In this document: piece by piece, positions 5,256-57,357 of the stretch
How positions within the stretch are numbered: position 1 is the stretch's first letter
Layout: every line of letters begins with the position of its first letter
Source: Lachnospiraceae bacterium
GTDB taxonomy: Bacteria > Bacillota > Clostridia > Lachnospirales > Lachnospiraceae
NCBI GenBank assembly: GCA_017474455.1
Contig: JAFVHP010000011.1
Location: forward strand, 62,001 to 126,000
Reading direction: 5' to 3'
Length of the DNA stretch: 64,000 nt
Notes under the pieces: model-generated
Database searches by the model: none
What the model saw: the letters and a program-made list of their open reading frames with translations, nothing else
What the model was told of the DNA's origin: nothing
Made by a program: the position numbers and the translations under genes

Positions 5256-6857
5256 ATGAAGAGAAAGATCATGGCAGGTTTGCTGTCGGCAGCAGTTCTT
5301 GTTGCAGCCCTGACAGCATGCGACGCAGGAGCGGCTGCTACAACAGCCCCTGCGGAAGATGCTGCTGCAGCTGTTGAGGAAGCAGCGGAAGCAGTAGAAG
5401 AAGCGGCAGAAGAGGTCGCTGAAGTTGCCGAAGCGGCTTCAGAAGAATGGGAAGGTGATGTTGACGAGATCAATATCCTTTTCTTTGACCTCAGAGGTGT
5501 AGGCGAGAATTCAAAAGAAGTCCTTGATGCAATGAACGAGATCACAGCTAAGAAGGCAGGCGTCAAGATCGCCCAGGCCAGGTTCGGAGCTGTTGCTGAA
5601 TACGGCAACGCTGTCAGCCTTGCGCTTTCATCAGGTGAACAGCTCGACGTTGTCGGCCTTTTCCCTGCTGATCCGGCCAGCTTCCAGGCTATGGTCGCGA
5701 ACGGCCAGCTGATGGATATCACAGACCTTATGGAAGAGTACGGCAAAGAGACCCTCGATATGATGGGCGACTATATCTACGGCATGTCCAACAACGGCCG
5801 TATCCTCGGCCTTCCCTGCTGGCGTAATTATTCCTCAGCCCTTTACCTCATTATGAGAAACGATGTTCTTGAGGATCTTGGCCTGATGGAAAAGGCACAG
5901 GCTATGACATCCTGGTCTGAAATGGAAGAGATCTGGGCAGCAGTCGCTGAAAGCGGATTCAACGGTTCCGAATTCGGCAGCTACAGGCAGCAGGCAGGCA
6001 CACTGTTGAACGCAGACAAGTTTGCAGATGCGAAGCCTTATGACAACCTGAGCGACGCGTACGGCCTGGTGTTTACGGATGGAGAGGGTAACGTTTCCCT
6101 TACGCTTGAGAATCCTGATTATATTGAATCCCTTGAAGCCCAGAAGGGCTATTGGGATAACGGATGGGTCTACAAGGATGCCCTCACGACAGAAGAGCAT
6201 GTTGATACTCTGACCAAGGCCGGCATCATCTTCTCATCCTTCCAGACTTCCGAAATGGGTGTTGAGACTTCCAAGAAGGAAGCTACAGGGTATGATGAGA
6301 CCTGTATCGAAGTTTCCAAGAACATGCTTGGTTCTTCCTATGTCAATAAGTTCGGTATGGCTGTTCCCGTTACAGCACAGGAACCTGAAGCAGCGGTCCG
6401 CTGGCTGAACGCGGTCTGGACAGATCCTGAACTCGAGAACCTCCTGATCTGGGGTATCGAAGGAAGAGACTATGTCGTGACCGAGACCGGCGAAGCTGAT
6501 TTCCCTGAAGGCTCAGACGGCAACGTTCCTTACCATGGTGCGGATTTCGTCATGGGCAACTATTTCAATGCTTATCCTTGGGCAGGCAACGGCGGCGATT
6601 TCCGTCAGAAAGCCTTTGATTATCTGATGGATTCCGAGATCTCCCCTTACATGGGCTTCACAGCGGACAACAGCGAGCTGGCGAACACCATGACGGCGAT
6701 CAACTCTGTATTCCAGAAATATTCCAGAAGCATCCTGTTCGGCGCCTATGCTGACGGCGATATCGACAAGTATATTGCTGAACTGAAGACAGCAGGCGTT
6801 GATGAATATCTCGGGATCATGCAGAGCCAGCTGGATGCCTGGAGGGCAGCACAGTAA
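5256..6857 (+). CDS. Extracellular solute-binding lipoprotein, DUF3502 type (copy 1)
   Basis: 533 residues. A signal peptide ends in a lipobox (ALTAC, C22), so the mature protein is lipid-anchored outside the membrane. Residues 23-65 are an Ala/Glu-rich predicted helix (repeats such as EEAAEAVEEAAEE), then a binding domain starting DEINILFFDLRGVGEN. The last 30 residues (YIAELKTAGVDEYLG) match the C-terminal DUF3502 segment of large Firmicute oligosaccharide-binding proteins. Such proteins normally feed an ABC importer with two permeases and none is nearby. The ATG at 5256 follows GAAGGGAGA; a TTG at 5193 in the same frame would add a non-signal-like stretch before the signal peptide and is rejected. 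It is a paralogue of the genes at 8936 and 10776 but more distant. The ligand is unknown; C-glycosides are possible given the neighbours. Confidence 0.88.
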   Translation: MKRKIMAGLLSAAVLVAALTACDAGAAATTAPAEDAAAAVEEAAEAVEEAAEEVAEVAEAASEEWEGDVDEINILFFDLRGVGENSKEVLDAMNEITAKKAGVKIAQARFGAVAEYGNAVSLALSSGEQLDVVGLFPADPASFQAMVANGQLMDITDLMEEYGKETLDMMGDYIYGMSNNGRILGLPCWRNYSSALYLIMRNDVLEDLGLMEKAQAMTSWSEMEEIWAAVAESGFNGSEFGSYRQQAGTLLNADKFADAKPYDNLSDAYGLVFTDGEGNVSLTLENPDYIESLEAQKGYWDNGWVYKDALTTEEHVDTLTKAGIIFSSFQTSEMGVETSKKEATGYDETCIEVSKNMLGSSYVNKFGMAVPVTAQEPEAAVRWLNAVWTDPELENLLIWGIEGRDYVVTETGEADFPEGSDGNVPYHGADFVMGNYFNAYPWAGNGGDFRQKAFDYLMDSEISPYMGFTADNSELANTMTAINSVFQKYSRSILFGAYADGDIDKYIAELKTAGVDEYLGIMQSQLDAWRAAQ

Positions 6858-6898
6858 TCTGTTATGGATTATTTAAGGTTTTAAGAAATCGGTTGTAT

Positions 6899-6940
6899 AT
6901 CAAAAGGGAGACGGTTATCCGCCTCCCTTTTGATCTTTCA
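6899..6940 (+). terminator. Intrinsic terminator after binding-protein copy 1
   Basis: Long hairpin with arms ATCAAAAGGGAG and CTCCCTTTTGAT extended inward by CGG/CCG around a TTAT loop, one internal mismatch. It is followed by a T-containing tail but not a perfect T-run. Confidence 0.8.
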
Positions 6941-7021
6941 GCTGTTTTTCTGAGATAAATACAAAATTCCGGCGTGTTGTTAATGTTGACGGTTTTCGCG
7001 GTTCTATTGCAGGTAATGATA

Positions 7022-7030
7022 TGCTATAAT
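7022..7030 (+). promoter_or_regulatory. Extended -10 promoter of deglycosidase-like operon
   Basis: TGCTATAAT, a consensus extended -10 (TGn plus TATAAT), with no good -35 at 17-18 bases. It would give a 5' leader of about 90 bases before the 7126 start codon. Confidence 0.5.
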
Positions 7031-7125
7031 TCATATATTGTTTAAAGGTGATCTGTTAAAGGCATTATAAAAATATACACATTCATACAGATTTTCCTAA
7101 ACCGTCAAGAAAGGAGAATACTTTA

Positions 7126-7593
7126 ATGTTTGACAGTTATCTGATCAAAGAAGACAGTCTCCAGAATGTTGTTGAGGACGGAAAGGTGGCCGGGTTTAAA
7201 TTTGCAGTCCGTATTGCGGACTACCGCGGCTGTTATCTTTCCCTTCATAACGGCTATTACATTTCTGTGGATGATGTCGAGTACCCTAAAGAGGTACAGA
7301 AATTCGAGATCAACGGCAAGGCTCCCAGAGACTTCGAAGAGATCAAAAAGTGCGTATGGGAACACTGGGATTATGATGACTGGGGATGGGTCTATGTAGC
7401 AAAAGAAGGCGGCCTTGCCCCCGGAAAGCATCATATCGGACTGCAGCAGTCCATTCTTGCCCAGTACGGTTATTTCCCTGAGCATGATGAAGAATGGGTC
7501 AAGAATCCTCCGATCCCCGGAAAAGGTGCAGGAGCAGGAAAATCCATGTTCATCTGCTACTTCGATCTTGATCTTCAGGAAGGAGGCAAATAA
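7126..7593 (+). CDS. C-glycoside deglycosidase beta-subunit-like protein (DUF6379 type)
   Basis: 155 residues, predicted all-beta. The start MFDSYLIKEDSLQNV and the later motif IADYRGCYLSL match the small beta subunit of two-component C-glycoside deglycosidases (DgpB/CarB-type, DUF6379). In that family it pairs with a TIM-barrel alpha subunit and helps cleave the C-C bond of 3-oxo-C-glycosides such as 3-oxo-puerarin. The gene directly downstream is exactly such an alpha subunit, two bases after this stop, so the heteromer is very likely. GAAAGGAGAATA precedes the ATG. The first pathway step needs a Gfo/Idh-type oxidoreductase (DgpA), not found in this window. Family assignment is from recognition of the pattern; the substrate is not deducible. 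Confidence 0.75.
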   Translation: MFDSYLIKEDSLQNVVEDGKVAGFKFAVRIADYRGCYLSLHNGYYISVDDVEYPKEVQKFEINGKAPRDFEEIKKCVWEHWDYDDWGWVYVAKEGGLAPGKHHIGLQQSILAQYGYFPEHDEEWVKNPPIPGKGAGAGKSMFICYFDLDLQEGGK

Positions 7594-7595
7594 TA

Positions 7596-8684
7596 ATGGG
7601 AATTAAGCGCGGTGTATCTTTCTACAGCTATCAGCAGACACAGTTCTTCGGGAAAATGTTCTGGAAGGATATGGTCCTTGAGCTTCATGATAACCTGAAG
7701 ACTGACGGTATCGAGATCATCGATGAATCGACGATCCCTCATTATCCGTTCCCTCCGCAGGAATTCATTTATGACTGGAACAGCTATCTTGCGCGTTATG
7801 ATATGAAAGCAGTCACAAAGGACGTCTATCTTGATGTCCACCAGTTCCGTGATCACGTCATGACACACAAAGAAGCAGCGGAAAGGCTTAAATACGATAT
7901 CAAGCTTGCTGCGGACATGGGGTTCCAGAATATCCGCTGCCTTTGCCTTGTCCCGATCGATGTTATCGAGATGTGCCTTGAAACGGCAGAAAAATACAAT
8001 GTCCGTATAGGCAAGGAGATCCATGCTCCGCTCCCGATCAGCACAGTCGGCAAAAAGCAGCCTACTAAAGGCATGGCCGGCGCACTGGACATCCATATGG
8101 TCGACCAGATCATTGACCTTGCCCAGAGGACCGGTTCCAAGCATGTGGGCCTTGTACCTGATTTCGGTATCTTCCAGTACAGGCCTTCACAGGTTGCGAT
8201 CGATTATAACAAACGTCATCTGAATCCCCAGCAGATCGAGGAGATGGAATGGCTCCTTGAGAACAGCATTAACTTTGAGGATGGTGAAGATGCAGCTCAG
8301 GATGCTTACAGGGCACAGTTCCCGAACGGTACTCTGAATCCTATGATTGTTGAGTCGATGTCGCTGCATAAGTCCTCCGCAGATCCGGAAGATCTCCGTC
8401 CGATCGTACCTTATATCCTCAGCATGCACGGCAAGTTCTATCAGATGACCGAGATCGAAGGAGAACCCGGCCATTATGAAGATAAGGCGATCAACTACGC
8501 GGATCCTATCCGTATCCTGAATGAAGAAGGCTTCCAGGGTTACATCAACTCCGAGTACGAAGGTCAGAGGGACCAGCAGGACCGCGGCAAGGAATTCCTT
8601 CCTGATGAAGTCGAGGAAGTCCGCCGCCATCATGAGATGCTCCAGAGGCTCTTTGATGCGACACCGAATAAGGGAGATCTTTAA
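7596..8684 (+). CDS. Sugar isomerase/epimerase-like TIM barrel; C-glycoside deglycosidase alpha-subunit-like
   Basis: 362 residues. A xylose-isomerase-type TIM barrel with a plausible metal tetrad E141 (in EIHAPLP), D189 (in VPDFGIFQ), H278 (in SMHGKFYQM) and E320 (in NSEYEG). H143 and the KFYQM segment are as expected for the alpha subunit (DgpC/CarC type) of C-glycoside deglycosidases, where a divalent metal promotes C1 bond cleavage. The beta-subunit-like gene lies two bases upstream. A plain sugar-phosphate isomerase is the alternative; the pairing with a DUF6379 protein favours deglycosidase. Start: AGGAGGCAAATAATATGG. Cytoplasmic, no signal peptide. With binding lipoproteins on both sides, import and cleavage of a plant C-glycoside is a reasonable hypothesis but unproven. 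Confidence 0.75.
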   Translation: MGIKRGVSFYSYQQTQFFGKMFWKDMVLELHDNLKTDGIEIIDESTIPHYPFPPQEFIYDWNSYLARYDMKAVTKDVYLDVHQFRDHVMTHKEAAERLKYDIKLAADMGFQNIRCLCLVPIDVIEMCLETAEKYNVRIGKEIHAPLPISTVGKKQPTKGMAGALDIHMVDQIIDLAQRTGSKHVGLVPDFGIFQYRPSQVAIDYNKRHLNPQQIEEMEWLLENSINFEDGEDAAQDAYRAQFPNGTLNPMIVESMSLHKSSADPEDLRPIVPYILSMHGKFYQMTEIEGEPGHYEDKAINYADPIRILNEEGFQGYINSEYEGQRDQQDRGKEFLPDEVEEVRRHHEMLQRLFDATPNKGDL

Positions 8685-8807
8685 TACTGAACGCAGCTTG
8701 TGCATCGGTACATAAGAGCAAGGCAGGATCAGCTTGATTGATGCATGGCAGTGCAGTAAACTTTTAATCAGTCGAAATTTAGTAATTCAAATTGCGCAAC
8801 CGCAGTA

Positions 8808-8843
8808 GGGCATCCGGGATCAAATGGCCCAGATGCCTTTTTT
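8808..8843 (+). terminator. Intrinsic terminator after deglycosidase-like operon
   Basis: Outer arms GGCATC and GATGCC close a 17-base loop that can itself pair GGG with CCC. Six T follow directly. Confidence 0.7.
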
Positions 8844-8935
8844 GATCAGAATGTCTGTTCGCACTTATATGAGGAACAGTTCCATCTGTCCATATAGGTG
8901 TTAACACAAAAAACCATTATCAAAAGGAGGAAGAA

Positions 8936-10573
8936 ATGAAGAAAAGGTTTTTTGCAATCCTGCTTGCAGGCGCAATGCTTGCAGCAGCAATCAGTGCCTG
9001 TGACGCCGGTGCAGCAGCACCTGCTGAACCCGCACAGGAAGCGGCCGAGGCTGTAGAAGAAGCAGCTGAAGCTACTGAAGAAGTTGCAGAAGCAGCAGAA
9101 GAAGTTGCGGAAGCAGCAGAAGAAGTTGTTGAAGAACCAGCAGCTGAAGAATGGGAAGGCGATGTTGATGAGATCAACGTCCTGTTCTTCGACCTTCGTG
9201 GTGTCGGTGAGAATGCTCAGCCGATCATTGACGCTATGAATGAGATCACGGCAAAGAAGGCCGGTGTTGTTATCAAGAACGCAAGATGGGCAGCTGTAGC
9301 CGAGTATGCGAACGCTGTCAGCCTTGGCCTTTCATCCGGCGAGCAGCTTGACATCGTCGGCGTTATGCCTATGGCACCCGCAAGCTTTTCATCCATGGTC
9401 GCTGCCGGTCAGCTCACTGACCTCACAGACATCATCGATGAGGAAGCTCCTGAACTTCGTGACCTGATGGGCGAGTACCTCAGCGGTATGTCCGTAAACG
9501 GCCAGATCCTGGGCGTTCCCTGCTTCCGTAACTATGCATCTGCCATGTATATCATCATGAGAGACGATATCCTTGAGAGCGTCGGCATGCTTGACAAGGC
9601 AAAAGCACTTGACAGCTGGTCAGGCCTTGAGGAGATCTGGGCTGCAGTTAAAGCCAGCGATTTCAACGGTGCGGAATGGGGCAGCGCAAGAATGCAGGCA
9701 GGCCTTCTTGCAAACGCTGATAAGTTTGCGGATTCAGTTCCCTATGACGTACTTGGCGATTCCTACAACCTCGTATTTACTGACAACGACGGCCATGTAA
9801 GCCTTTCTCTTGAGAATCCGGATTTCGTAGACGGACTGACAAAGCAGAAAGCATACTGGGATGCTGACTATTGCTACAAGGATGGCCTTACAACAGAAGA
9901 GCATGTCGATACCCTGACAAAGGCAGGCATCATCTTCTCCTCCATCCAGACATCTGAAATGGGTGTTGAAGCAGCCAAAAAGGAAGCTACAGGCTATGAT
10001 GAGACATGTATCGAAGTTAACAAGAACATGCTGACATCTTCCCATGTCAACAAGTTCGGTATGGCTGTTCCCGTAACAGCACAGGAACCTGAAGCTGCAG
10101 TCCGCTGGCTGGCAGCTGTCTGGACTGATCCCGTTCTTGAAAACCTCCTGATCTGGGGTATCGAAGGCGAAGATTATGTCATCACAGAGACCGGCGAAGC
10201 TGATTTCCCTGAGGGAACAGATGGAAACGTTAAGTATCACGGCGCCGACTTCGTCATGGGCAACTACTTCAATGCTCTTCCCTGGGTAGGAAACGGTGTA
10301 GGCGGCAACTTCCGTCAGGCAGCTTATGATTATCTTGTAAGCTCCGATGTATCTCCTTACATGGGCTTCACATCCGACAACTCCGGACTTGACAACACCA
10401 TCACTGCGATCAACAGTGTATACAACAAGTGGGGCAAGACCATCAGCTTCGGTGCCTGGGAAGAAGGCGACATTGAAGCGTACATTGCTGAGCTGAAGAC
10501 AGCAGGTGTTGAGGATTATCTTGGCGCTATGCAGGAACAGCTGGATGCATGGAGAGCAGCTGTTGGAGAATAA
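8936..10573 (+). CDS. Extracellular solute-binding lipoprotein, DUF3502 type (copy 2)
   Basis: 545 residues. Signal peptide with lipobox AISAC (C22), then an Ala/Glu stalk of about 50 residues made of EEVAEAA heptads, then the binding domain (DEINVLFFDLRGVGENAQ) and the DUF3502-type C-terminus (YIAELKTAGVEDYLG). It is very close to copy 3 along its whole length and clearly related to copy 1; long blocks around TTEEHVDTLTKAG and WGIEGEDYVITETGEADF are nearly invariant. The start is fixed by AAAGGAGGAAGAA before ATG. It has its own terminator, so it is probably monocistronic. No permease or ATPase is adjacent, so it must share a transporter encoded elsewhere or act as a surface receptor. Substrate not deducible from sequence. 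Confidence 0.9.
   Translation: MKKRFFAILLAGAMLAAAISACDAGAAAPAEPAQEAAEAVEEAAEATEEVAEAAEEVAEAAEEVVEEPAAEEWEGDVDEINVLFFDLRGVGENAQPIIDAMNEITAKKAGVVIKNARWAAVAEYANAVSLGLSSGEQLDIVGVMPMAPASFSSMVAAGQLTDLTDIIDEEAPELRDLMGEYLSGMSVNGQILGVPCFRNYASAMYIIMRDDILESVGMLDKAKALDSWSGLEEIWAAVKASDFNGAEWGSARMQAGLLANADKFADSVPYDVLGDSYNLVFTDNDGHVSLSLENPDFVDGLTKQKAYWDADYCYKDGLTTEEHVDTLTKAGIIFSSIQTSEMGVEAAKKEATGYDETCIEVNKNMLTSSHVNKFGMAVPVTAQEPEAAVRWLAAVWTDPVLENLLIWGIEGEDYVITETGEADFPEGTDGNVKYHGADFVMGNYFNALPWVGNGVGGNFRQAAYDYLVSSDVSPYMGFTSDNSGLDNTITAINSVYNKWGKTISFGAWEEGDIEAYIAELKTAGVEDYLGAMQEQLDAWRAAVGE
9077..9130 (+). repeat. 21-bp tandem repeat encoding the stalk of copy 2
   Basis: Two and a half copies of a 21-base unit beginning GAAGAAGTTGC and encoding EEVAEAA. 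The unit starts at 9077, 9098 and 9119. It lengthens the helix between the lipid anchor and the binding domain. Confidence 0.8.
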
Positions 10574-10618
10574 GAATTACAGAACGGCTGTAAATTGAAT
10601 GCATTTTCATGAAACATT

Positions 10619-10649
10619 GGCACTCCGCGTTATGCGGAGTGCCTTTTTT
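10619..10649 (+). terminator. Intrinsic terminator after binding-protein copy 2
   Basis: Perfect ten-pair stem GGCACTCCGC / GCGGAGTGCC, loop GTTAT, six T. Nearly identical to the terminator after copy 3. Confidence 0.95.
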
Positions 10650-10775
10650 ATAAGCAGCTATGAAAATCATTGTTATTTATATATAATTAAAAATAGTTAT
10701 TACATATAATCTTTCCGGATGTTCAGGAAGGATAAGTAGTATAGGCAAACATGTTTTAACAAAAGGGGGTAAACG

Positions 10776-12401
10776 ATGAAAAAAAGGCTTTTGGCAATTT
10801 TGTTGTCAACAGTAATGCTCATGGCTGCGGTCACTGCCTGTGACGCCGGCGCGGCAGCTCCTGCACCGGCTCCGGAAGCAGCCGAAGAAGTTGCGGAAGC
10901 AGCAACAGAGGCAGTAGAAGAAGTTGCGGAAGCAGCGACAGAGGCAGCCGAAGAAGTTGCGGAAGCAGCGTCCGAAGAATGGCAGGGAGATATTGATGAG
11001 ATCAATATCCTGTTCTTTGATCTTCGCGGTGTTGGTGACAACGCGCAGCCGATCATTGACAGAATGAATGAGATCACTGCAAAGAAAGCGGGCGTTGTTG
11101 TTAAGAATGCTAGATGGGCAGCGATCGCGGAATATGCAAACGCAGTCAGCCTTGCAATGTCGGCAGGCGAACAGCTTGATGTCTGCGGCGTTTTTCCGAT
11201 GGCACCTGCCAGCTTCTCTGCAATGGTTGCGGCTGGACAGCTGACAGATCTCACAGAACTTCTTGACGAAGAAGGCAAAGATCTGAAAGCGGCGATGGGA
11301 GAGTATCTTGATGGTATGTCAGTCAATGGCAGGATCCTCGGTGTACCCTGCTTCCGTAACTATGCGTCCGCCATGTACGTTATCATGAGAAATGATATTC
11401 TTGAAGACGTTGGCATGATGGAGCAGGCCAAGGCTCTTGACAGCTGGTCAGGGTTGGAAGAAATCTGGGCAGCTGTAAAGGAAAGCGGATTCAGCGGTGC
11501 AGAATGGGGCAGTGTCAGAATGCAGGCCGGCATGCTCGCGACACCTGACAAGTTTGCTGACGCAGTAGCTTATGATGTCCTTGGCGACACATACAACCTT
11601 GTGTTCACAGATGACGAAGGCCATGTTAGCCTTTCGTATGATAATCCGGAGTTTGTCGAAGGTATTTACAAGCAGAAAGAATACTGGGATGCTGATCTTT
11701 GCTACAAAGACGGACTTACAACAGAAGAACATGTAGATACCCTTACAAAGGCAGGCATTATCTTTTCATCCCTGCAGACATCCGAAATGGGTGTTGAAGC
11801 TGCCAAGAAGGAAGCTACAGGCTATGATGAGACCTGTATTGAACTGAAGAAAAACCTGCTGACATCATCACACGTCAATAAGTTTGGTATGGTAGTTCCG
11901 GTAACATCCCAGGAACCTGAAGCTGCAGTCCGCTGGCTGAATGCCGTATGGACAGATCCTGAGCTTGAAAATCTTCTGATCTGGGGTATTGAAGGCGAAG
12001 ATTATGTGATCACAGAGACCGGCGAAGCTGATTTCCCTGAAGGAACAGACGGCAATGTTAAGTATCATGGCGCTGACTTTGTCATGGGCAACTACTTCAA
12101 TGCTCTTCCCTGGGTAGGCAACGGTGTCGGTCCTGAATTCCGTAAAGCAGCTTATGAATATCTTGTAAGCTCTGAGGTATCCCCTTATATGGGCTTCACC
12201 TCAGACAACTCCGCACTTGACAATACGCTTACTGCTCTCAACAGCGTGTACAATAAGTGGGGCAAGATGATCTCCTTCGGCGCATTCCAGGATGGAGATA
12301 TCGATGCCTATGTTGCCGAGCTGAAGACAGCTGGTGTCGATGATTATCTTGGCGCTCTGCAGGAACAGCTGGATGCCTGGAGGGCAGCTATTGGAGAATA
12401 A
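10776..12401 (+). CDS. Extracellular solute-binding lipoprotein, DUF3502 type (copy 3)
   Basis: 541 residues. Signal peptide with lipobox AVTAC (C22), an Ala/Glu stalk built from an 11-residue unit (EEVAEAATEAV), and the same binding fold as copy 2, beginning DEINILFFDLRGVGDNAQ. Identity with copy 2 is high by eye along the whole domain, and the two genes share near-identical terminators and 3' flanks (GAATAAG...GAATGCATTT), so they arose by tandem duplication including the terminator. The start follows AAAGGGGGTAAACG. Lipid-anchored outside the membrane; presumed carbohydrate or glycoside binding for an ABC importer whose membrane parts are not here. Changes such as SYDNPEF for SLENPDF suggest shifted specificity, but this is only a guess. 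Confidence 0.9.
   Translation: MKKRLLAILLSTVMLMAAVTACDAGAAAPAPAPEAAEEVAEAATEAVEEVAEAATEAAEEVAEAASEEWQGDIDEINILFFDLRGVGDNAQPIIDRMNEITAKKAGVVVKNARWAAIAEYANAVSLAMSAGEQLDVCGVFPMAPASFSAMVAAGQLTDLTELLDEEGKDLKAAMGEYLDGMSVNGRILGVPCFRNYASAMYVIMRNDILEDVGMMEQAKALDSWSGLEEIWAAVKESGFSGAEWGSVRMQAGMLATPDKFADAVAYDVLGDTYNLVFTDDEGHVSLSYDNPEFVEGIYKQKEYWDADLCYKDGLTTEEHVDTLTKAGIIFSSLQTSEMGVEAAKKEATGYDETCIELKKNLLTSSHVNKFGMVVPVTSQEPEAAVRWLNAVWTDPELENLLIWGIEGEDYVITETGEADFPEGTDGNVKYHGADFVMGNYFNALPWVGNGVGPEFRKAAYEYLVSSEVSPYMGFTSDNSALDNTLTALNSVYNKWGKMISFGAFQDGDIDAYVAELKTAGVDDYLGALQEQLDAWRAAIGE
10884..10972 (+). repeat. 33-bp tandem repeat encoding the stalk of copy 3
   Basis: Units begin at 10884, 10917 and 10950 with GAAGAAGTTGCGGAAGCAGC and encode EEVAEAATEAV/A. 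The period (33) differs from the 21-base period in copy 2, although both share the same core, so the stalks expanded independently. Confidence 0.8.
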
Positions 12402-12452: not shown

Positions 12453-12483
12453 GGCACTCCGCTATTTGCGGAGTGCCTTTTTT
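12453..12483 (+). terminator. Intrinsic terminator after binding-protein copy 3
   Basis: Perfect ten-pair stem GGCACTCCGC / GCGGAGTGCC, loop TATTT, six T. Confidence 0.95.
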
Positions 12484-12599: not shown

Positions 12600-13217
12600 G
12601 TGGATAAGACACTGACGAACCGGCAGAGACGGGCTCTGGAAACCAGGGCAAAGCTTATAGAAGCGGCCAAAAGGGTGCTGGCAGAAAAAAGCTTCGATGA
12701 AGTTTCCGTAGAGGATATTACCGCGCTGGCCGGTGTATCGACAGGTTCATTCTATACATATTTCAAACGGAAAGAGGATATCGTTGACGCTATCAATGAC
12801 GATACAGTCTTCCGGCTTGCGGAGATCGTCAATGAAAAGACGGATCTTGATATTTATGAACGGATCCGGTTCTATTGCAGGGAATACCTGAACAGAATAG
12901 AAGACCATGGGCTGGAGATCTGCAGACAATGGCTGCGGAATACGCTGTCTCCTGTTGAGTTTAAGATCCTTGGCGAGGAGAAAACGATCTGGCAGCATGA
13001 TCTTGATTCTGTGGAAAAGATCCTGCAGGAAGCGATAAACAGGAACGAATTGCGCAGGGAAGCACCGGTCGGAGATATTGCAGGATTCATCGTCGCCGAA
13101 CTGTACGGGCTCCAGTCACTGTGGTGTATGTCCGACGGGAGTATTGATGTTATCGCGTTCTCGGAAAGACTGAGCAGACTTGGACTGGAAAATGTTCTTG
13201 AAAAATACACGGTTTAA
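12600..13217 (+). CDS. TetR/AcrR-family transcriptional regulator
   Basis: 205 residues. The N-terminal DNA-binding domain (residues 12-60) has the usual pattern RAKLIEAAKRVLAEKSFDEV, then VEDITALAGVSTGSFYTYFK. The C-terminal region is helical ligand-binding sequence unlike any characterised subtype I recognise. GTG is the start: GGAGGAATCTGA lies just upstream and no ATG fits. It is followed at 35 bases by a MATE efflux pump, so it most likely represses an operon of itself and the pump and is released by a compound the pump exports. The paired palindromes over its promoter are the obvious operator. Both the inducer and the DNA contact are untested. Confidence 0.9.
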   Translation: MDKTLTNRQRRALETRAKLIEAAKRVLAEKSFDEVSVEDITALAGVSTGSFYTYFKRKEDIVDAINDDTVFRLAEIVNEKTDLDIYERIRFYCREYLNRIEDHGLEICRQWLRNTLSPVEFKILGEEKTIWQHDLDSVEKILQEAINRNELRREAPVGDIAGFIVAELYGLQSLWCMSDGSIDVIAFSERLSRLGLENVLEKYTV

Positions 13218-13252: not shown

Positions 13253-14656
13253 ATGGAAGAAAAAAAGCAGAAACGATTTGATTTTACAAAGGGTGAGATC
13301 TTAAAGCCGATGATCCTTTTCACCCTTCCGGTACTTCTGGGAGATGTTTTCTCAGCGCTGTACAACGTGGTCGACTCTCTTGTGGTCGGCAGGTTCGTCG
13401 GCAGTAATGCGCTTGCTGCTGTCAGTGCCAGTTTTGCCATTACGATGGTCACGGTAGCGGTCTATGCGGGCTTCGGAATGGGCTCCTCCGTCGTTATGGG
13501 CCAGCTGTTCGGCGCCAAGCGGATGGATGATCTTGCAAAGGGTATTTCAACAGCGATACTTGGTGCCGTGATCGTAGGGCTGAGTATGACTGTTGTAGGA
13601 CTTATTATCAGTAAACCGCTTCTTTCCCTGATCAATACCCCGGCTGAGATCATGCCCGGTGCTACGATATATTTAAGGATATATATGCTTGGGTGCATGA
13701 CGCAGCTTATGTATTTCATGAGTTCCGGGATCATGAGGGCGCTGGGAGATTCCAAGCATCCCATGTATTACCTGATTGTCTGCTCTATCATCAATATCGT
13801 GCTGGATATCGTCTTTGTTGCTGTGTTCCACTGGAATGAGGCCGGCGTTGCTGCCGCGACGGTGATCGCGCAGGCTGTCAGCGCGGTCCTGGGCATTCAT
13901 CGTATACTGACCGGTTTCGGCATTAAGATCTCAAGAGATAAGTTCAGGATCCACGGCAGTATCCTGAAACTGATCCTGAAGATCGGCGTACCTGCGGCGG
14001 TCCAGCAAAGTATCAATTCCGTAGGTATGCTTTTCATACAGAGCTTTTCAAATTCCTTTGGCGCGGCGCTGGTTGCGTCCAACGGTATCATGCAGAAGCT
14101 TGACGGCTTCGCTCAGCTTCCTGTGATGGCACTTGGCACGACGGTCACTACTTTCAATTCCCAGAACATCGGGGCCGGTGAAAAGGAGAGGGCACAGCAG
14201 GGCAACCGTAAAATGATGATCGTCGTTATTGGTGTCTGCGTTGTTGTAGGTGTCCTGCTCTTCACGTTCTGCGGATCACTGTATAAGCTTTTCCTGAATC
14301 CCGCCGATCCGAACTACGACCTGGTCGTAGAGATGGGTATGCGCAGTGTCCGGATCGTGTCCATGTTCTATTGGGCGTTCGGCCTTCAGATGATGTTTGT
14401 TTCGGTGCTCCGCGGCCTTGGCGCGACGATCCCGACCATGATCATTTCGATCTGCTTTACCATCCTCCGTGTCCCGGTCACCAAGTTTATGGCCAAGCCC
14501 GGCACGCCGGCGGCGGATTACACAATGCTGTACTGGGCACAGAGTCTGTTCTTTGTGCTGATGTTCCTGGCCATGTTCCTTTATTACAAATTCGGCAACT
14601 GGGAAAAATACTCTGTTGTCAGGAGACAGGGAAAAACCGGCAAGGAAGATATCTGA
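13253..14656 (+). CDS. MATE-family multidrug/metabolite efflux transporter
   Basis: 467 residues with about twelve hydrophobic helices in two halves. The family starts are clear: LFTLPVLLGDVFSALYNVVD in helix 1 and VGRFVGSNALAAV after it, repeated in the second half (QQSINSVGMLFIQSFSNSFG). MATE pumps export drugs or metabolites across the cytoplasmic membrane using a sodium or proton gradient. The start follows GGAGGTAAGA closely. It shares an operon with the TetR regulator and ends at a strong terminator. It is related to, but not a recent copy of, the MATE protein at 27744. Substrate unknown. Confidence 0.92.
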   Translation: MEEKKQKRFDFTKGEILKPMILFTLPVLLGDVFSALYNVVDSLVVGRFVGSNALAAVSASFAITMVTVAVYAGFGMGSSVVMGQLFGAKRMDDLAKGISTAILGAVIVGLSMTVVGLIISKPLLSLINTPAEIMPGATIYLRIYMLGCMTQLMYFMSSGIMRALGDSKHPMYYLIVCSIINIVLDIVFVAVFHWNEAGVAAATVIAQAVSAVLGIHRILTGFGIKISRDKFRIHGSILKLILKIGVPAAVQQSINSVGMLFIQSFSNSFGAALVASNGIMQKLDGFAQLPVMALGTTVTTFNSQNIGAGEKERAQQGNRKMMIVVIGVCVVVGVLLFTFCGSLYKLFLNPADPNYDLVVEMGMRSVRIVSMFYWAFGLQMMFVSVLRGLGATIPTMIISICFTILRVPVTKFMAKPGTPAADYTMLYWAQSLFFVLMFLAMFLYYKFGNWEKYSVVRRQGKTGKEDI

Positions 14657-50456: not shown

Positions 50457-51398
50457 ATGGCATTAAAAGTTGGACTGATTCTTTATTCGGTAAGGGATGA
50501 GATGGCGAAGGATCCCATCGCGACTGTCAGGAAAGTCGGCGAATGCGGATACAAGTACATCGAAACATGCAACCACAACGCGATCAAGGATCCCGGCTGC
50601 GGGTTCGGCGTGCCGGCTGAGGAACTAAAGGCAGCGTTTGACGAGTTTGGCTCAAAAGTCGTCAGCACACATATTTTCCCGCTTGAGAGCGCGGATATCA
50701 AAGAAGTAGTCAAGTATAACAGTATCGTGGGGAATAAGAACCTGGTCAATCCGATGGGCAGCTTTTCCACCTATGACGATATGATGAAGCAGATCGAAGG
50801 ATTTAACGAACTGGGCAGGCAGCTCCGCGAAGAAGGAATGACTTTCCTTTATCACAACCACCATTTTGAGTTCAAGACCTTCAACGGCAAGACGATCGAA
50901 GATTATATCATGGAGAACACAGATCCCGAATACCTGTCCTTTGAGCTGGATACATTCTGGGTGATGCGTTCAGGCCTGTGCCCTGTCGAGATGCTCAAAC
51001 ATATGGGCAAGAGAGTAAAGCTCGTCCATCAGAAGGACTTTGCATGGGATTCTACCATCGCGATCAATGTTGTCGGACGGACACCCGAAGAGCGCGAGAT
51101 GCAGGAAGGCGAATTTGTCGGCATGAACGCTGAATCCAATTATGCGAAAGCCGGCGGAAAGCATACCGTCAGGGAAGAAAGGGAAGACAAGGCGTTTTCG
51201 GAAGAAGGCCACGCCGCCTTCACAGAGATCGGCACCGGGATCATGCATATCCAGGATATCATTGACGCAGCCAATGAGTATACCGATGCGGAATACATTA
51301 TCCTTGAGCAGGACTATACCAGAATGCCGACACAGATCGATTCCATTAAGAAGAGTATGGAAGGCTTCCGTAAATTCAGCGGTATCTCCTGGGAGTGA
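50457..51398 (+). CDS. Sugar-phosphate isomerase/epimerase-like TIM barrel
   Basis: 313 residues. A xylose-isomerase-like TIM barrel: start KVGLILYSVRDEM, central FLYHNHHFEFK, ELDTFWVMRSGL with the acidic metal ligand, KLVHQKDFAW and a final YIILEQDYTRMP. It interconverts sugars, sugar phosphates or keto-sugars with a divalent metal; the precise substrate is not deducible. A loop of about 40 residues between strands 7 and 8 (GRTPEEREMQ, then EDKAFSEEG) is longer than usual. It is not closely related to the 7596 protein. TAGGAAAGGGGAATGAC precedes ATG, and the MerR-type promoter lies 43 bases before that. Monocistronic. Confidence 0.8.
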   Translation: MALKVGLILYSVRDEMAKDPIATVRKVGECGYKYIETCNHNAIKDPGCGFGVPAEELKAAFDEFGSKVVSTHIFPLESADIKEVVKYNSIVGNKNLVNPMGSFSTYDDMMKQIEGFNELGRQLREEGMTFLYHNHHFEFKTFNGKTIEDYIMENTDPEYLSFELDTFWVMRSGLCPVEMLKHMGKRVKLVHQKDFAWDSTIAINVVGRTPEEREMQEGEFVGMNAESNYAKAGGKHTVREEREDKAFSEEGHAAFTEIGTGIMHIQDIIDAANEYTDAEYIILEQDYTRMPTQIDSIKKSMEGFRKFSGISWE

Positions 51399-52452: not shown

Positions 52453-55400
52453 ATGGAAAAGCTAAGCGTTAAAAAACCGTTTACTGTCCTTGTGGCAGTA
52501 TTGATCATACTTATTCTCGGTGTGGTCTCGGCTTTGAGGATCCCGACAGACCTGCTCCCTTCGATCAGCCTTCCCTACATGATCGTGATCACACCGTATC
52601 CGGGCGCATCCCCCGAAAGGGTGGAGGCTATGGTCAGTGTACCTATGGAAAGGTCTCTCGGCACGGTCTCCCACGTCAAGAATGTCACATCCACCAGCGC
52701 GGAAAACTACAGCATGGTCCAGCTGGAATTCGAGGACGGGACCGATATGGATTCCGCCATGGTCAAAGTATCCAGTTCGGTAGAGCAGGTAAGAGGGCAG
52801 CTCCCGGCGGAATGCGGCACGCCCAGCATAATCGAGATCAGCATGGACATGATTGCCACCATGTACCTGGCGGTCAGTCGTGACGGGTACGACATTTATG
52901 AGCTGTCCGAGTTTATAGAAGACGAAGTGGTGCCGTATTTTGAAAGACAGGAAGGCGCTGCGAGCGTCAGCACGATCGGCCTTGTCGAGAAGAGCATCCA
53001 GGTAGATCTGAACGCGGTCAAAATACAGGAACTGAACGACCGGATACTGGAAAAGACGGACAGCGCTCTGGCACAGGCCAGAAAGCAGCTGGATGACGCG
53101 AAACGGCAGGTGGAAGACGGACAGTCCGAACTGGAATCACAGGAAAGACGGTTCGGTTCCACAGTGGCCTCCGGTATGATGAGCCAGCTTGAACCTGGCA
53201 CAGGTGACCTGCAGGTACGCCTGAAGGAATCCATCACGCAGATGTACCAGAGGCTGGACGCCCTGCAGAATTCCGTCAACGGGATGAACGGGGTAGGGAG
53301 CGGCCTTGCCGGGGATATCGGCGGCGCTATGCAGAATTTCCAGAATGCATACTGGGAAGCTTTTTATGATTATTTCAATGCCAGGCGAGCTTCTGAAAAT
53401 GCCTTGAAAGCATCTGAAAAGACTGTGGAGGAAATGAACGAAGCTGTGGAAAAGGCGCTCGAGGAAAAAGAACAGGAGCGTCAGGAACAGCAGAACGAAG
53501 AGAATAAGCAGGAAGGACAGGATCCTCCGCAGGAACAGGCACATCAGGAAGAGCAGGCCCCGCCGCAGGAGCAAACGCCGCAGGAAGAACAGACCCCGCC
53601 GCAGGAACAGACACCGCAGGAAGGACAGACCCCGCCGCAGGAAAATACGCCGCAGGATGAGCAGACCCCGCCGCAGGAGCAGCCGACCCAGGAACAGCAG
53701 AGTACGCAGGAAGAGCCCGGAAATGCAGCCGCAGAGCCGGTCTATATAAATACAGAAGAGCCGCCTGCGGAACCTTCTGCGGATCAGCCGACGGATACAT
53801 CGGCAGACCCCGGGACGGATGTCCCTGAACCGGCAGAATCGTCCGATACCGGAATGACAGGGAGAAGCATTTCAGCTCCCGGCGGTTTGGGAAATCTGTA
53901 TTCGGACAAGCCTTCCGATCATATTATCCTGCACAGCGGAGGGCAGCGCCTCCTTATCAGGACTGCCGCGTATGATACGGCGGACGAAGAAGGGGATGAC
54001 CCTTTTGCGGATATCCCGGAAGAACTCCCCGACGAGATCAGGCAGAGAATAGAAGAAGCTTACGAAGATGTAGAAACAGCCGCAGAGGCGGCTGGCGAAT
54101 ACCTGAGCCGTGAAGAAGTGACGGCACGTCTGGAAAGTGCAAGAAAAGACCTGGAAGACGCGTATACTGCACTGGACGGCGGTTCTATCTCCAGTATCGC
54201 GGCCGGCATATCCAAACTGGTCTCGGCTGAAGCCAGGATCCAGTCCCTTATGGAGAGGATCCAGAAAGCCGATACCGCCGGCAGCCTTAATCAGCCTGTA
54301 AGCCGCATCTACGAAGCATTGAGGCAGATGGATGAAGGGATAGAACAGCTTCCACAGATGATGGATTCACTGGAGCAGGGGCTTTCCATGCTCACCCAGG
54401 GACAGCTGGACGCCGCTCTGGGATTTTCGCAGGCCGCGAACGGGCTGTTTACTATGCAGCAGCAGCTGGAGCAGGCTTCCGCGCAGTACGAATCTGCCAG
54501 GACCGAAGCCTTAAAGAGTGCCAATATCGACACGCTGGTAACGGCGCCCATGCTTTCCCAGCTGATCTATGCCCAGAATTTCTCCATGCCGGCAGGTTAT
54601 ATCGACGATCAGGACGACCGTTCCTGGCTTTTGAAGATCGGGGAAGAATTCGATACTTCCGAAGATATTGCCGGAGCGCTGCTGGCGGATATTGACGGGA
54701 TCGGTACGATCAGGCTGTCCGACGTGGCCGACATAACTGTGATCGACAATGCCGGAGTATCCTATACCAAGCTGAACGGACAAAACGGTGTCGTCGTTTC
54801 GATCTACAAGAGTTCTACGGCCAGCACCAGCGAGGTTTCCGAAGCCTGTAAAAAGGCGGTCAAAGAACTGATGGAGGACAAGCCGGGAACAAATGTCGTC
54901 ATACTGATGGACCAGGGATCCTATATCCGCCTGATCGTTTCGGATATCCTTTCCAGCATGGCGCTGGGCGCTTTTCTGGCCGTTATCGTTCTTGCCCTGT
55001 TCCTGAGAGACGTCAGGCCTACGATCATGGTCGGCATAAGCATACCGCTGTCAGTACTGTTCACGATGGTACTGATGTACTTCTCGAACCTGAGCCTGAA
55101 TATCATGACCATGGCGGGTATTTCGCTGGGCATCGGCATGCTGGTCGATAACTCCATCGTCGTTATGGAGAATATCATCCGCCTGCGGCAGCGCGGGACT
55201 TCTCCCGCGAGGGCTTCCGTACAGGGGGCGAAGCAGGTCTCCGGATCTATCATCGCTTCCACACTGACGACCATCTGCGTTTTTTTGCCGATGGTCTTTA
55301 CGACCGGTACGGTACGGGAACTCCTGCTCCCGATGGCGCTGTCGATAACTTACTGCCTGACAGCCTCCCTGATCGTGGCCATGACCGTGATACCGGCCTC

Positions 55401-57357
55401 TGCCAGCGTGATCCTCAAAAGGATACGGCCCAAACGCCGTTCACTTTTCGACAGGATCCTGGACAGGTACGGCACTACACTTGCCTGGACTCTGCACCAT
55501 AAACTGATCGTTATGGCTGTGGCAATAGGCCTTCTTGCTTTCTGCATCTGGAGACTTATCGTAATGGGTATCGTCATGCTGCCGGATATGAGTTCGGATA
55601 CGATACAGGTCGATATCAGGACCCCCGCGGGGCTGGACAGGGAGGAATCCTATGCCATGGCGGATGAGATCGCGGAAAGGATCATGTCGATCGACGGTGT
55701 TGCCGATGTCGGTATCATGGATTCATCCAGTACGGCAGGCCTTATATCGGTAATGACGACATCGTCCGGAGGCTACGGCAGTTATCTGAGCTATATTATC
55801 GCGGAAGACAATTCGCGCAAAAATCTTGACAGGATCAGTGGGGAAATAAAGGAAGCAACGGACGATCTCCTTGAAGGATCGGTAAAAGTAGCAGAAACGG
55901 CGATGGGCGATATGACTGCCCTGATGCCCAGCGGCCTGTCTGTAAACATATACGGGACTGATCTGGATATGCTGTATGATACCGGCAATGCCGTTGCTGA
56001 TTCCGTCATGGATATCCATGGGTTTACAAACGTCCGGAACAGCGCCGGCGCGCAGGAACAATCGCTCCTGCTCCATATAGACAAGGATAAGGCGATGGGG
56101 ATGGGACTGACGGTCGCCCAGATCTATGCCGAGATCGCCGGCAGGATGCAGACGGAAGTGACTTCCACCAGCATAACCACGGACGGGATCACGCTGACCG
56201 TACATGTCAGGGATGAGACAAAGCCGCTGACCAGGGAAAACCTCCTGGATCTGGAATTCAAAACACAGTCCATGTTCCCGCAGATGCCGGCGGCAGGAGA
56301 TACTGAAGCGGCGGGAGAGGCTGACGGATCCGGCGGTGAAGAAGCAGAAAGCGGACCGGACGATGAAGCAGACCTTGCGGATCTGATGAGTCTTTTCGGA
56401 GGGGCTTCCGCTTCGCCGAAAGAAGAAATTCACAAACTCAGGGAGTTCGCGACTCTGGAAGAAACTCTTTCGCCGCGGGCGATCAACAGGGAGAACCAGT
56501 CCAGATACGTGACTGTCTCGGCAGACACGATGCCGGGCTATAATACCACGCTCCTTTCCCGCCAGCTGGAAGAAAGCGTAGACAGGATGAACGCCTCGCT
56601 GCCTCACGGGTATTCGGTCGAGATCGGCGGGGAGAGCAGCCAGGTCAATGAAATGATCGTGCAGATGGCAAAGATGCTGCTGCTGGCGCTGGCGTTTATA
56701 TACCTTGTCATGGTCGCGCAGTTCCAGAGCCTTCTGTCGCCGTTCATCATACTGTTTACGATCCCTCTGGCATTCACGGGAGGCATGATAGCCCTGCTAA
56801 TCACCCGTGAACAGCTTTCCATGCTGGCCCTGATGGGCTTTCTGGTGCTGATGGGAACGGTCGTCAATAACGGTATCGTATTCGTTGATTATACCAATCA
56901 GCTGCGGATCGGCGGCCTTGGACGGCAGGATGCGCTTATCGCCGCGGGCAAGACAAGGATGCGCCCTATCCTGATGACAGCCCTGACCACGATCCTTGCC
57001 ATGACACAGCTGATCTTTGGTGACGGGATGGGTGCCCAGATCAGCCGGGCGATGGCGCTGGTCATATCCGGCGGCCTTATTTACGCTACACTGATGACGC
57101 TTTATATCGTACCTCTGGTTTACGACATTCTTTATAAGAAACAGCCGCTGTCCGTTGATGTGGACAGTGACATCGACGACGCTCCCGATGACGCGGCCGA
57201 GTTCCTTGCAGAGCTGAACCGCCGGGAAGAAGCGTATGAAGAAGAGATGCCTGTTATCCCGGAAGATGATGCAGACGGAGAGGATGAGTATGATTATGAT
57301 CCGGATGCGGACTGGGATGACGGTATAGACGATATGGATACGACAGAATTGGAATGA
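52453..57357 (+). CDS. RND efflux transporter with 500-residue inserted extracellular domain
   Basis: 1634 residues; AcrB/HAE1-type permeases usually have about 1030. The opening KPFTVLVAVLIILILGVVSA, then YPGASPERVEAMVSVPMER, is TM1 and porter start. Residues 190-700 are an insert in the porter region: a Gln/Glu coiled coil (197-343), a Pro/Gln/Glu repeat PPQEQTPQEEQT (354-420), and a second helical part (500-690). The porter resumes near residue 708 (SMPAGYIDDQDDRSWLLKIG), then TM4 GIGMLVDNSIVVMENIIRLR with the proton-relay aspartate, and a second half ending in LVYDILYKK. An acidic cytoplasmic tail ends the protein. It probably exports a hydrophobic compound; the insert may bridge the wall since no adaptor gene is present. 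No ribosome site is seen. Confidence 0.9.
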   Translation: MEKLSVKKPFTVLVAVLIILILGVVSALRIPTDLLPSISLPYMIVITPYPGASPERVEAMVSVPMERSLGTVSHVKNVTSTSAENYSMVQLEFEDGTDMDSAMVKVSSSVEQVRGQLPAECGTPSIIEISMDMIATMYLAVSRDGYDIYELSEFIEDEVVPYFERQEGAASVSTIGLVEKSIQVDLNAVKIQELNDRILEKTDSALAQARKQLDDAKRQVEDGQSELESQERRFGSTVASGMMSQLEPGTGDLQVRLKESITQMYQRLDALQNSVNGMNGVGSGLAGDIGGAMQNFQNAYWEAFYDYFNARRASENALKASEKTVEEMNEAVEKALEEKEQERQEQQNEENKQEGQDPPQEQAHQEEQAPPQEQTPQEEQTPPQEQTPQEGQTPPQENTPQDEQTPPQEQPTQEQQSTQEEPGNAAAEPVYINTEEPPAEPSADQPTDTSADPGTDVPEPAESSDTGMTGRSISAPGGLGNLYSDKPSDHIILHSGGQRLLIRTAAYDTADEEGDDPFADIPEELPDEIRQRIEEAYEDVETAAEAAGEYLSREEVTARLESARKDLEDAYTALDGGSISSIAAGISKLVSAEARIQSLMERIQKADTAGSLNQPVSRIYEALRQMDEGIEQLPQMMDSLEQGLSMLTQGQLDAALGFSQAANGLFTMQQQLEQASAQYESARTEALKSANIDTLVTAPMLSQLIYAQNFSMPAGYIDDQDDRSWLLKIGEEFDTSEDIAGALLADIDGIGTIRLSDVADITVIDNAGVSYTKLNGQNGVVVSIYKSSTASTSEVSEACKKAVKELMEDKPGTNVVILMDQGSYIRLIVSDILSSMALGAFLAVIVLALFLRDVRPTIMVGISIPLSVLFTMVLMYFSNLSLNIMTMAGISLGIGMLVDNSIVVMENIIRLRQRGTSPARASVQGAKQVSGSIIASTLTTICVFLPMVFTTGTVRELLLPMALSITYCLTASLIVAMTVIPASASVILKRIRPKRRSLFDRILDRYGTTLAWTLHHKLIVMAVAIGLLAFCIWRLIVMGIVMLPDMSSDTIQVDIRTPAGLDREESYAMADEIAERIMSIDGVADVGIMDSSSTAGLISVMTTSSGGYGSYLSYIIAEDNSRKNLDRISGEIKEATDDLLEGSVKVAETAMGDMTALMPSGLSVNIYGTDLDMLYDTGNAVADSVMDIHGFTNVRNSAGAQEQSLLLHIDKDKAMGMGLTVAQIYAEIAGRMQTEVTSTSITTDGITLTVHVRDETKPLTRENLLDLEFKTQSMFPQMPAAGDTEAAGEADGSGGEEAESGPDDEADLADLMSLFGGASASPKEEIHKLREFATLEETLSPRAINRENQSRYVTVSADTMPGYNTTLLSRQLEESVDRMNASLPHGYSVEIGGESSQVNEMIVQMAKMLLLALAFIYLVMVAQFQSLLSPFIILFTIPLAFTGGMIALLITREQLSMLALMGFLVLMGTVVNNGIVFVDYTNQLRIGGLGRQDALIAAGKTRMRPILMTALTTILAMTQLIFGDGMGAQISRAMALVISGGLIYATLMTLYIVPLVYDILYKKQPLSVDVDSDIDDAPDDAAEFLAELNRREEAYEEEMPVIPEDDADGEDEYDYDPDADWDDGIDDMDTTELE

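What the first reader, a model, noticed from the sequence alone, without database searches (positions are those of the whole stretch)
5256..12401. Three orphan DUF3502 binding lipoproteins flank a C-glycoside deglycosidase-like pair
Three large surface binding proteins, two of them near-identical tandem copies, surround a DUF6379-like beta subunit and a TIM-barrel alpha subunit, with no permease, ATPase or DgpA-like oxidoreductase in the window. This suggests a glycoside uptake and cleavage locus in which binding specificity was multiplied while the transporter is shared from elsewhere.
Basis: partly seen in the sequence, partly recalled or inferred. Interest (0 to 1): 0.7.

Follow-up and report, generated by a model that had tools for sequence, protein, structure and literature searches.

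The report
Glycoside-binding lipoproteins sharing few importers
A bacterium carries 21 related surface proteins that probably catch plant glycosides and 33 enzymes of a type that splits hard-to-break sugar-aglycone bonds, yet only two matching importer channels were found, so one import gate may serve many substrate catchers.

Summary
"Near-identical" is overstated: SBP2 and SBP3 share 80.5% (84% in the mature domain). Alpha keeps the five CGD metal ligands and groups with solved CGDs, apart from 11 other TIM-barrel proteins of the genome (SH-aLRT 94).

The larger finding is genome-wide. This 2.62 Mb draft holds 21 DUF3502 binding proteins, 33 CGD beta domains (each beside or fused to an alpha) and two permease pairs of the matching type. 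One of 21 binding proteins has such a permease within 5 kb; in ten comparison genomes it is 44 of 55. A second genome (4 of 39; 14 CGD betas) expanded its binding proteins largely independently. In three relatives this binding-protein subfamily shares a cluster with permease and CGD.

So "multiplied binding specificity, shared transporter" is well supported as gene content. Docking on those permeases, and C- rather than O-glycosides as substrates, are inference. Orphan binding-protein expansions are known for another transporter class (TTT/Bug), so this is a new variant of a known kind.

The parts
5256..6857 (+). SBP1, DUF3502 extracellular solute-binding lipoprotein (533 aa)
   Evidence: Pfam PF12010 52.7 bits; lipobox LTAC; sister to the SBP2/SBP3 pair, support 100
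6899..6934 (+). strong hairpin after SBP1, no T-run behind it
   Evidence: part of a fold of -31.1 kcal/mol, z -6.3; not listed by the terminator scan
7126..7593 (+). CGD beta subunit (155 aa)
   Evidence: PF19906 CGDB 126.6 bits; the 7 solved matches at E <= 1 are DgpB/DfgB/DUF6379 chains or the N-terminal part of the 435-residue 8qrz chain
7596..8684 (+). CGD alpha subunit, TIM barrel (362 aa)
   Evidence: E 6.9e-38 to 8qvc and E 1.3e-26 to 7bvr (PuCGD); metal ligands E141, D189, H278, K280, E320; in the CGD clade
8807..8839 (+). weak hairpin followed by a T-run after alpha
   Evidence: z -2.1; not listed by the scan
8936..10573 (+). SBP2, DUF3502 solute-binding lipoprotein (545 aa)
   Evidence: PF12010 50.2 bits; match over residues about 85-538 to solved SBPs 5mlt, 5swa and 5suo, E about 1e-10
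10619..10643 (+). terminator after SBP2
   Evidence: 13 found in the region against 8.7, sd 3.0, in shuffles; z -6.6
10776..12401 (+). SBP3, DUF3502 solute-binding lipoprotein (541 aa)
   Evidence: PF12010 49 bits; 83.9% to SBP2 in the mature domain
12453..12477 (+). terminator after SBP3, nearly the same stem as that after SBP2
   Evidence: z -5.9
12600..13217 (+). TetR-type regulator, next unit (link to the system not shown)
   Evidence: PF00440
13253..14656 (+). MATE exporter after the TetR gene (link to the system not shown)
   Evidence: PF01554; MATE genes near SBPs only weakly enriched, 6 of 35, p 0.04

Best explanation
The window holds one module of a genome-wide hub-and-spoke glycoside scavenging system. 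Each spoke is a surface lipoprotein of the DUF3502 family that catches a particular glycoside, often beside a C-glycoside deglycosidase (CGD) beta/alpha pair. The hub is two permease pairs of the LplB/YtcP kind (name recalled) on another contig, driven by a stand-alone UgpC-type ATPase. Inside the cell a DgpA-type oxidoreductase encoded elsewhere oxidises C3 of the sugar, and the local Mn-dependent alpha/beta pair removes the sugar by beta-elimination. Shown here: gene content, intact CGD active-site residues, no matching permease within 5 kb for 20 of 21 binding proteins, lineage-specific expansion, and co-location with CGDs. Inferred: docking of these binding proteins on the shared permeases, glycoside ligands, and the reaction.
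For: Own genome: 21 DUF3502 hits, 33 CGD-beta hits, two matching permeases at E <= 1e-20 (pairs), a UgpC-type ATPase on C19, one clear DgpA relative. SBPs with a matching permease gene within 5 kb: 1 of 21 here, 4 of 39 in G067, 44 of 55 in ten other genomes. 33 of 33 CGD betas have an alpha beside or fused; 35 of 35 alpha-type proteins of the fetched regions keep E-D-H-K-E. SBPs within 5 kb of a CGD beta: 11 of 21, p 3.6e-6; collapsed to loci 8 of 17, p 2e-4. The same SBP subfamily, permease pair and CGD share one cluster in G364 C24, G110 C69, G067 C3:74219-79800 and own C19:129351-134851. A matching permease also lies about 5 kb past the CGD pair in the named locus L061. SBP tree: 17 of 21 own SBPs form one clade (98). 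dN/dS 0.09-0.20 among the three window SBPs.
Against: 10 of 21 SBPs have no CGD beta within 5 kb; several sit near esterases, a sulfatase or GH3/GH35/GH39/GH43 genes, so the set serves more than CGDs. None of the 5 named loci with a related alpha, Catenibacillus scindens (L059) among them, shows an SBP hit, though two of the loci are only 7-8 kb long. The genome is a 51-contig draft, 96.55% complete, so a permease could be missing. Distances run between hit starts; measured from gene edges a second own SBP (C19:137112) lies 4.2 kb past a permease pair, behind the CGD genes. The comparison genomes were chosen by me, most because they carry CGD betas.
Confidence: 0.6

Rival explanations
1. The system is real but its substrates are mainly O-glycosides (or decorated oligosaccharides) cleaved by C3 oxidation and beta-elimination, not C-glycosides.
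For: PuCGE cleaves 3-keto O- as well as C-glucosides, and C-glycosides are a minor part of plant glycosides (PMC10628242, abstract and passages). Orphan SBPs also lie near carboxylesterases, YdjC, a sulfatase and GH3/35/39/43 genes.
Against: Alpha and beta fall with enzymes characterised on C-glycosides; one alpha elsewhere in the genome is 85.7% identical to EuCGD DfgA over 265 aligned residues.
Confidence: 0.3
2. The orphan lipoproteins are sensors or surface scavengers rather than importer subunits; CGD substrates enter by other transporters.
For: SBP2 and SBP3 each end in a clear terminator and SBP1 in a strong hairpin, apart from any permease. For TTT orphan SBPs sensing has been proposed and shown in one system (PMC5994714, passages). 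Other sugar-type ABC permeases exist in the genome.
Against: In relatives the same SBP subfamily sits directly beside the permease pair. Among the 30 neighbour proteins scanned there was no histidine kinase, only a MATE protein with an HATPase_c_2 domain at C17.
Confidence: 0.15
3. The shortage of permeases is an assembly gap: more permease genes exist but were not assembled or binned.
For: Draft of 51 contigs, 96.55% complete.
Against: 20 of 21 SBP genes have no matching permease within 5 kb, and a second genome rated 98% complete shows the same pattern, 4 of 39.
Confidence: 0.05

Closest known systems
dgpABC of strain PUE (PuCGD) and dfgABCDE of Eubacterium cellulosolvens (EuCGD)
   Same: AP_endonuc_2 alpha with adjacent CGDB/DUF6379 beta; same five metal ligands.
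   Different: No oxidoreductase next to this pair, a DgpA relative is on another contig; three binding lipoproteins flank the pair; 33 CGD betas in one genome.
Catenibacillus scindens and C. decagia CGD repertoires (PMC11170127, abstract and passages read)
   Same: Several dgpBC clusters in one Lachnospiraceae genome, dgpA apart from dgpBC; C. scindens alpha 69% identical to the window's; the paper mentions several uncharacterised ABC transporters of the aldouronate family.
   Different: The paper reports four (C. scindens) and six (C. decagia) dgpBC; here 33 beta domains. No binding protein within 8 kb of the matching C. scindens alpha.
CUT1-type importers of the LplB/YtcP kind with a DUF3502 binding protein and a shared MsmX/UgpC ATPase (names recalled)
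   Same: Binding-protein family, permease relatives and a separate UgpC-type ATPase.
   Different: Usually about one binding protein per permease pair (44 of 55 SBPs have one within 5 kb in ten genomes); here 21 to 2.
Bug/TctC orphan binding proteins of Bordetella, Cupriavidus and Rhodoplanes (TTT transporters; PMC5994714, passages read)
   Same: Lineage-specific expansion of orphan binding proteins with few membrane components (79 and 181 in two Bordetella species against at most four).
   Different: Another transporter class and protein family, Gram-negative; no coupling to one large enzyme family in the passages I read.

Membership tests
C-glycoside deglycosidase (CGD, DgpBC/DfgAB) | CGDB/DUF6379 beta subunit encoded beside an AP_endonuc_2 alpha | tested here: met
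   PF19906 and PF01261 above cut-offs, two bases between the genes
C-glycoside deglycosidase (CGD, DgpBC/DfgAB) | Five metal ligands Glu147, Asp179, His269, Lys271, Glu305 (AgCGD2 numbering, PMC8563793 section 11) | tested here: met
   E141, D189, H278, K280, E320 in the window alpha; same letters in 35 of 35 alpha-type proteins of the fetched own regions
C-glycoside deglycosidase (CGD, DgpBC/DfgAB) | Groups with characterised CGDs and not with ordinary sugar isomerases | tested here: met
   64 rows including 4 solved CGDs against 11 AP_endonuc_2 outgroup rows of the own genome, SH-aLRT 94, under the starred level of 95; one alpha-type row without its own beta (C19:100775) was put in the outgroup by me
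C-glycoside deglycosidase (CGD, DgpBC/DfgAB) | Cleaves the C-C bond of a 3-oxo-C-glycoside | not testable with these tools
   needs an enzyme assay
dgpABC-type operon | GFO/IDH/MocA oxidoreductase in the same cluster | tested here: not met
   no PF01408 hit in the window; DgpA relative at C30:82016
DUF3502 ABC solute-binding protein | Lipoprotein signal and C-terminal DUF3502 domain | tested here: met
   lipobox read by eye
DUF3502 ABC solute-binding protein | Encoded with the matching permease pair | tested here: not met
   none within 5 kb of the three window genes; 1 of 21 in the genome
TTT/Bug binding proteins (analogy only) | TctC-type protein family | tested here: not met
   PF12010 is the only Pfam family matched at E <= 0.01

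The most novel reading that the evidence does not exclude
A bacterium, probably a gut or rumen Lachnospiraceae, has built a modular C/O-glycoside intake machine: about 20 diversified binding lipoproteins all dock on one or two ABC permease pairs with one ATPase and feed one main C3 oxidase and some 33 beta-eliminases, so that a new substrate is added by adding a binding protein and a lyase, never a channel. A second lineage did the same separately.
Probability: 0.45. Interest if true: 0.78.

Novelty: new variant of a known kind. Interest (0 to 1): 0.62.

Why it matters
C-glycosides are hard to break, and no C-glycoside importer turned up in my paper searches (open-licence library, mostly listings seen; PMC11170127 notes only uncharacterised aldouronate-family ABC transporters). 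A genome with 33 CGD beta domains is a ready panel for learning what sets C- against O-glycoside preference. If many binding proteins share a permease, an ABC importer can be extended by adding binding proteins alone, which is directly testable.

Tried and rejected
Recent tandem duplication of SBP2/SBP3: rejected, dS about 1.1. Long Ala/Glu-rich linker as a special feature of the orphan SBPs: rejected as specific, since other lipoproteins outside the DUF3502 set have it too, e.g. C30:211317 and C30:26425. MATE exporters as aglycone exporters of the system: weak only, 6 of 35 near SBPs (p 0.04), 4 of 35 near CGD betas (p 0.55), 10 of 35 near either (p 0.03). CGD expansion as one in-house radiation: not supported, own alphas need 13 changes on the tree against 3 for the own SBPs. 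The alpha tree had two wrong-strand outgroup ORFs and was replaced. The paper search used too general a term; those gave nothing used. The promoter scan found 11 against 11.6 expected and says nothing.
Full report
What is there. SBP1, SBP2 and SBP3 are lipoproteins with a DUF3502 domain; 7126-7593 is a CGDB (DUF6379) beta subunit; 7596-8684 is its TIM-barrel alpha. SBP2 and SBP3 are 80.5% identical, 83.9% in the mature domain, not near-identical; SBP1 is 71-73% identical to both there, and dN/dS is 0.09-0.20. Clear terminators follow SBP2 and SBP3; a strong hairpin without T-run follows SBP1 and a weak hairpin with T-run follows alpha, both unlisted by the terminator scan. So these look like separate units and not one operon.

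Is the pair a deglycosidase? By sequence, yes. Alpha matches 8 distinct solved chains at E <= 1e-10. Seven of these entries also hold a chain or domain matched by beta; the eighth is AgCGD2, and entries of PuCGD and EuCGD are named in PMC8563793 (data-availability passages). The ninth match, 1k77, has E 0.3. That 8qvc is a Deinococcus CGD is my recollection. The five metal ligands named in PMC8563793 (section 11 read) are present. In a tree of 75 rows the 64 CGD-type rows, four of them solved CGDs, separate from 11 AP_endonuc_2 proteins of the same genome with SH-aLRT 94, just under the tool's starred level. The closest named relatives of the window alpha are uncultured Lachnospiraceae RUG14852 (70%), Catenibacillus scindens (69%), an uncultured Eubacteriales (68%), Lachnoclostridium sp. 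Marseille-P6806 (62%) and an uncultured Oscillospiraceae (50%): 5 of 12 pattern-matched stretches were confirmed. None of these 5 loci shows an SBP hit; L061 has a matching permease about 5 kb past its CGD pair.

The genome. The window is C41:62001-126000 of a 2,624,103-base draft in 51 contigs, 96.55% complete. No taxon name is given; the named alpha relatives suggest Lachnospiraceae, which is inference. It holds 21 DUF3502 hits and 33 CGDB hits. All 33 betas have an alpha beside them or fused; four are single-chain fusions, one in beta-alpha and three in alpha-beta order. One beta, at C19:99251, lies over two overlapping reading frames. All 35 alpha-type proteins of the fetched regions keep E-D-H-K-E. 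Among 397 genomes drawn from the same family 35, this one included, have a CGDB hit; among 398 drawn from the phylum 4, this one included. Scoring was cut at 11 per genome in those two scans; the other genomes with more than 11 candidates (G067, G046) were rescored and have 14 and 2. So 33 is the highest count seen. The single congener sampled (G267) has no CGDB, no DUF3502 and no matching permease hit. For comparison, PMC11170127 (abstract and passages) reports four dgpBC in C. scindens and six dgpBC with 11 dgpA in C. decagia.

Transporters. The genome has 40 PF00528 hits. Two pairs, C19:106120-108424 and C19:131028-132899, are 329-379 bits to each other, while the other permeases of the fetched regions score 80 bits or less against them; a whole-genome search with the C19:131028 permease finds just these two at E <= 1e-20. 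I call them LplB/YtcP-like from recall; NCBIfam gives only UgpA-, GlcT- and MalG-like matches below its cut-offs. A UgpC-type ATPase lies on C19 near 153,600, about 20 kb from the nearest permease; the other two OB_MalK hits are together on C26. SBPs with a matching permease hit (at least 154 bits) within 5 kb, between hit starts, are 1 of 21 in G000, 4 of 39 in G067 (some of the 39 are fragments), and 44 of 55 pooled over G373, G250, G110, G046, G003, G364, G144, G214, G036 and G322. Permeases above 200 bits number 2, 4 and 42. G373, of the same genus as G067, is intermediate (6 of 12) and G003 low (2 of 5). Five further genomes with DUF3502 hits (G291, G148, G321, G007, G015; six hits) were not in the permease search and are left out. 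By gene edges one more own SBP, C19:137112, lies 4.2 kb past a permease pair, and C19:115897 7.5 kb past the other.

Evolution. A quick tree of 84 SBPs (all 21 own; 32 of 39 from G067, fragments dropped; 31 from ten other genomes, those that I had fetched) puts 17 own SBPs in one clade (98) and an 18th beside it (82); C15:74361 falls among G067 proteins, and C19:137112 and the permease-linked C19:129351 branch lower. The G067 rows need 8 changes and form several clades of their own. So the two lineages expanded largely independently. In G364, G110, G067 and on own C19, members of this SBP subfamily share a cluster with the permease pair and CGD genes: the best link between SBP, permease and CGD. 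The own CGD alphas, in contrast, are spread over the CGD tree (13 changes), one being 85.7% identical to EuCGD DfgA over 265 residues: the enzymes look collected or ancient, the binding proteins radiated in-house.

Neighbourhoods. 11 of 21 SBPs lie within 5 kb of a CGD beta (p 3.6e-6; 8 of 17 loci, p 2e-4; binomial on genome coverage). Others lie near a carboxylesterase and YdjC (C6), a sulfatase and TauE (C18), GH3 or GH35/DUF5597 (C15), AraC-GH39 fusions (C15, C19, C30), GH43 with carboxylesterase (C26) or an aldo-keto reductase (C36) (30 proteins scanned). This fits binding proteins specialised for variously decorated glycosides, but also says that the set is not only about CGDs.

The oxidase. 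PF01408 gives 15 hits, none in the window. C30:82016-83083 matches solved DgpA (7xr9 E 1.9e-85; 9m3d E 5.7e-86), far above the next, glucose-fructose oxidoreductase at E 1.6e-30, and lies 3 kb from a CGD pair. Another tested, C11:26829, has no solved match at 1e-20; C21:34826 and C26:82581 are 40-43% identical to a G046 oxidoreductase in a CGD cluster. Only 7 of the 15 were compared by sequence, so further DgpA-type enzymes are not excluded.

Mechanism and its limits. Most likely: glycoside caught by a lipoprotein, imported through a shared permease pair, oxidised at C3 by a DgpA-type enzyme, and cleaved by beta-elimination at the Mn site of alpha/beta, giving aglycone and 2-hydroxy-3-keto-glucal (chemistry from PMC10628242, abstract and passages). 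Gene content and active-site residues are shown; transport, binding, reaction and C- against O-glycoside preference are inferred. Expansion of orphan binding proteins has a precedent in TTT/Bug systems (PMC5994714, passages). I found no paper on a C-glycoside ABC importer, which search an open-licence library only; the one paper naming DUF3502 looks unrelated by title and abstract start (listing only).

Noticed in passing
window 52453-57357 (+): A 1634-residue AcrB/RND-type transporter, much longer than the 1021-position family model.
   Followed up: no
whole genome G000; window 13253-14656 is one: 69 MatE half-domain hits, about 35 MATE transporter genes in 2.6 Mb.
   Followed up: partly
L027 (C6:71427-72842), L039 (C19:133439-134851 and C19:141571-143028), L047 (C26:193016-194461): CGD alpha and beta fused in one chain in both orders: one beta-alpha and three alpha-beta.
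   Followed up: partly
L037, C19:99137-99666: A CGD beta lying over two overlapping reading frames next to an intact alpha, perhaps a frameshift; described only.
   Followed up: no
window SBP leaders and other lipoproteins of G000, e.g. C30:211317 and C30:26425: Many lipoproteins of this genome carry Ala/Glu/Val-rich stalks after the lipidated Cys (about 40-66 residues in most own SBPs), unlike the Ser/Gly/Thr-rich linkers of SBPs in relatives.
   Followed up: partly
L031 C15:77648, L039 C19:138925, L049 C30:13759: Proteins joining an AraC-type HTH_18 domain to a GH39-like domain near orphan SBPs.
   Followed up: no
window 50457-51398 (+): An AP_endonuc_2 TIM barrel close to C6:20242 and C21:13140, outside the CGD clade.
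   Followed up: partly
L052, C30:163011-164366: CGD alpha 85.7% identical to EuCGD DfgA, with a beta beside it.
   Followed up: no
L061, 7469-15369: Lachnoclostridium sp. Marseille-P6806: CGD pair with a permease of the matching type about 5 kb downstream and a MATE gene between, no SBP seen in the 17 kb.
   Followed up: no
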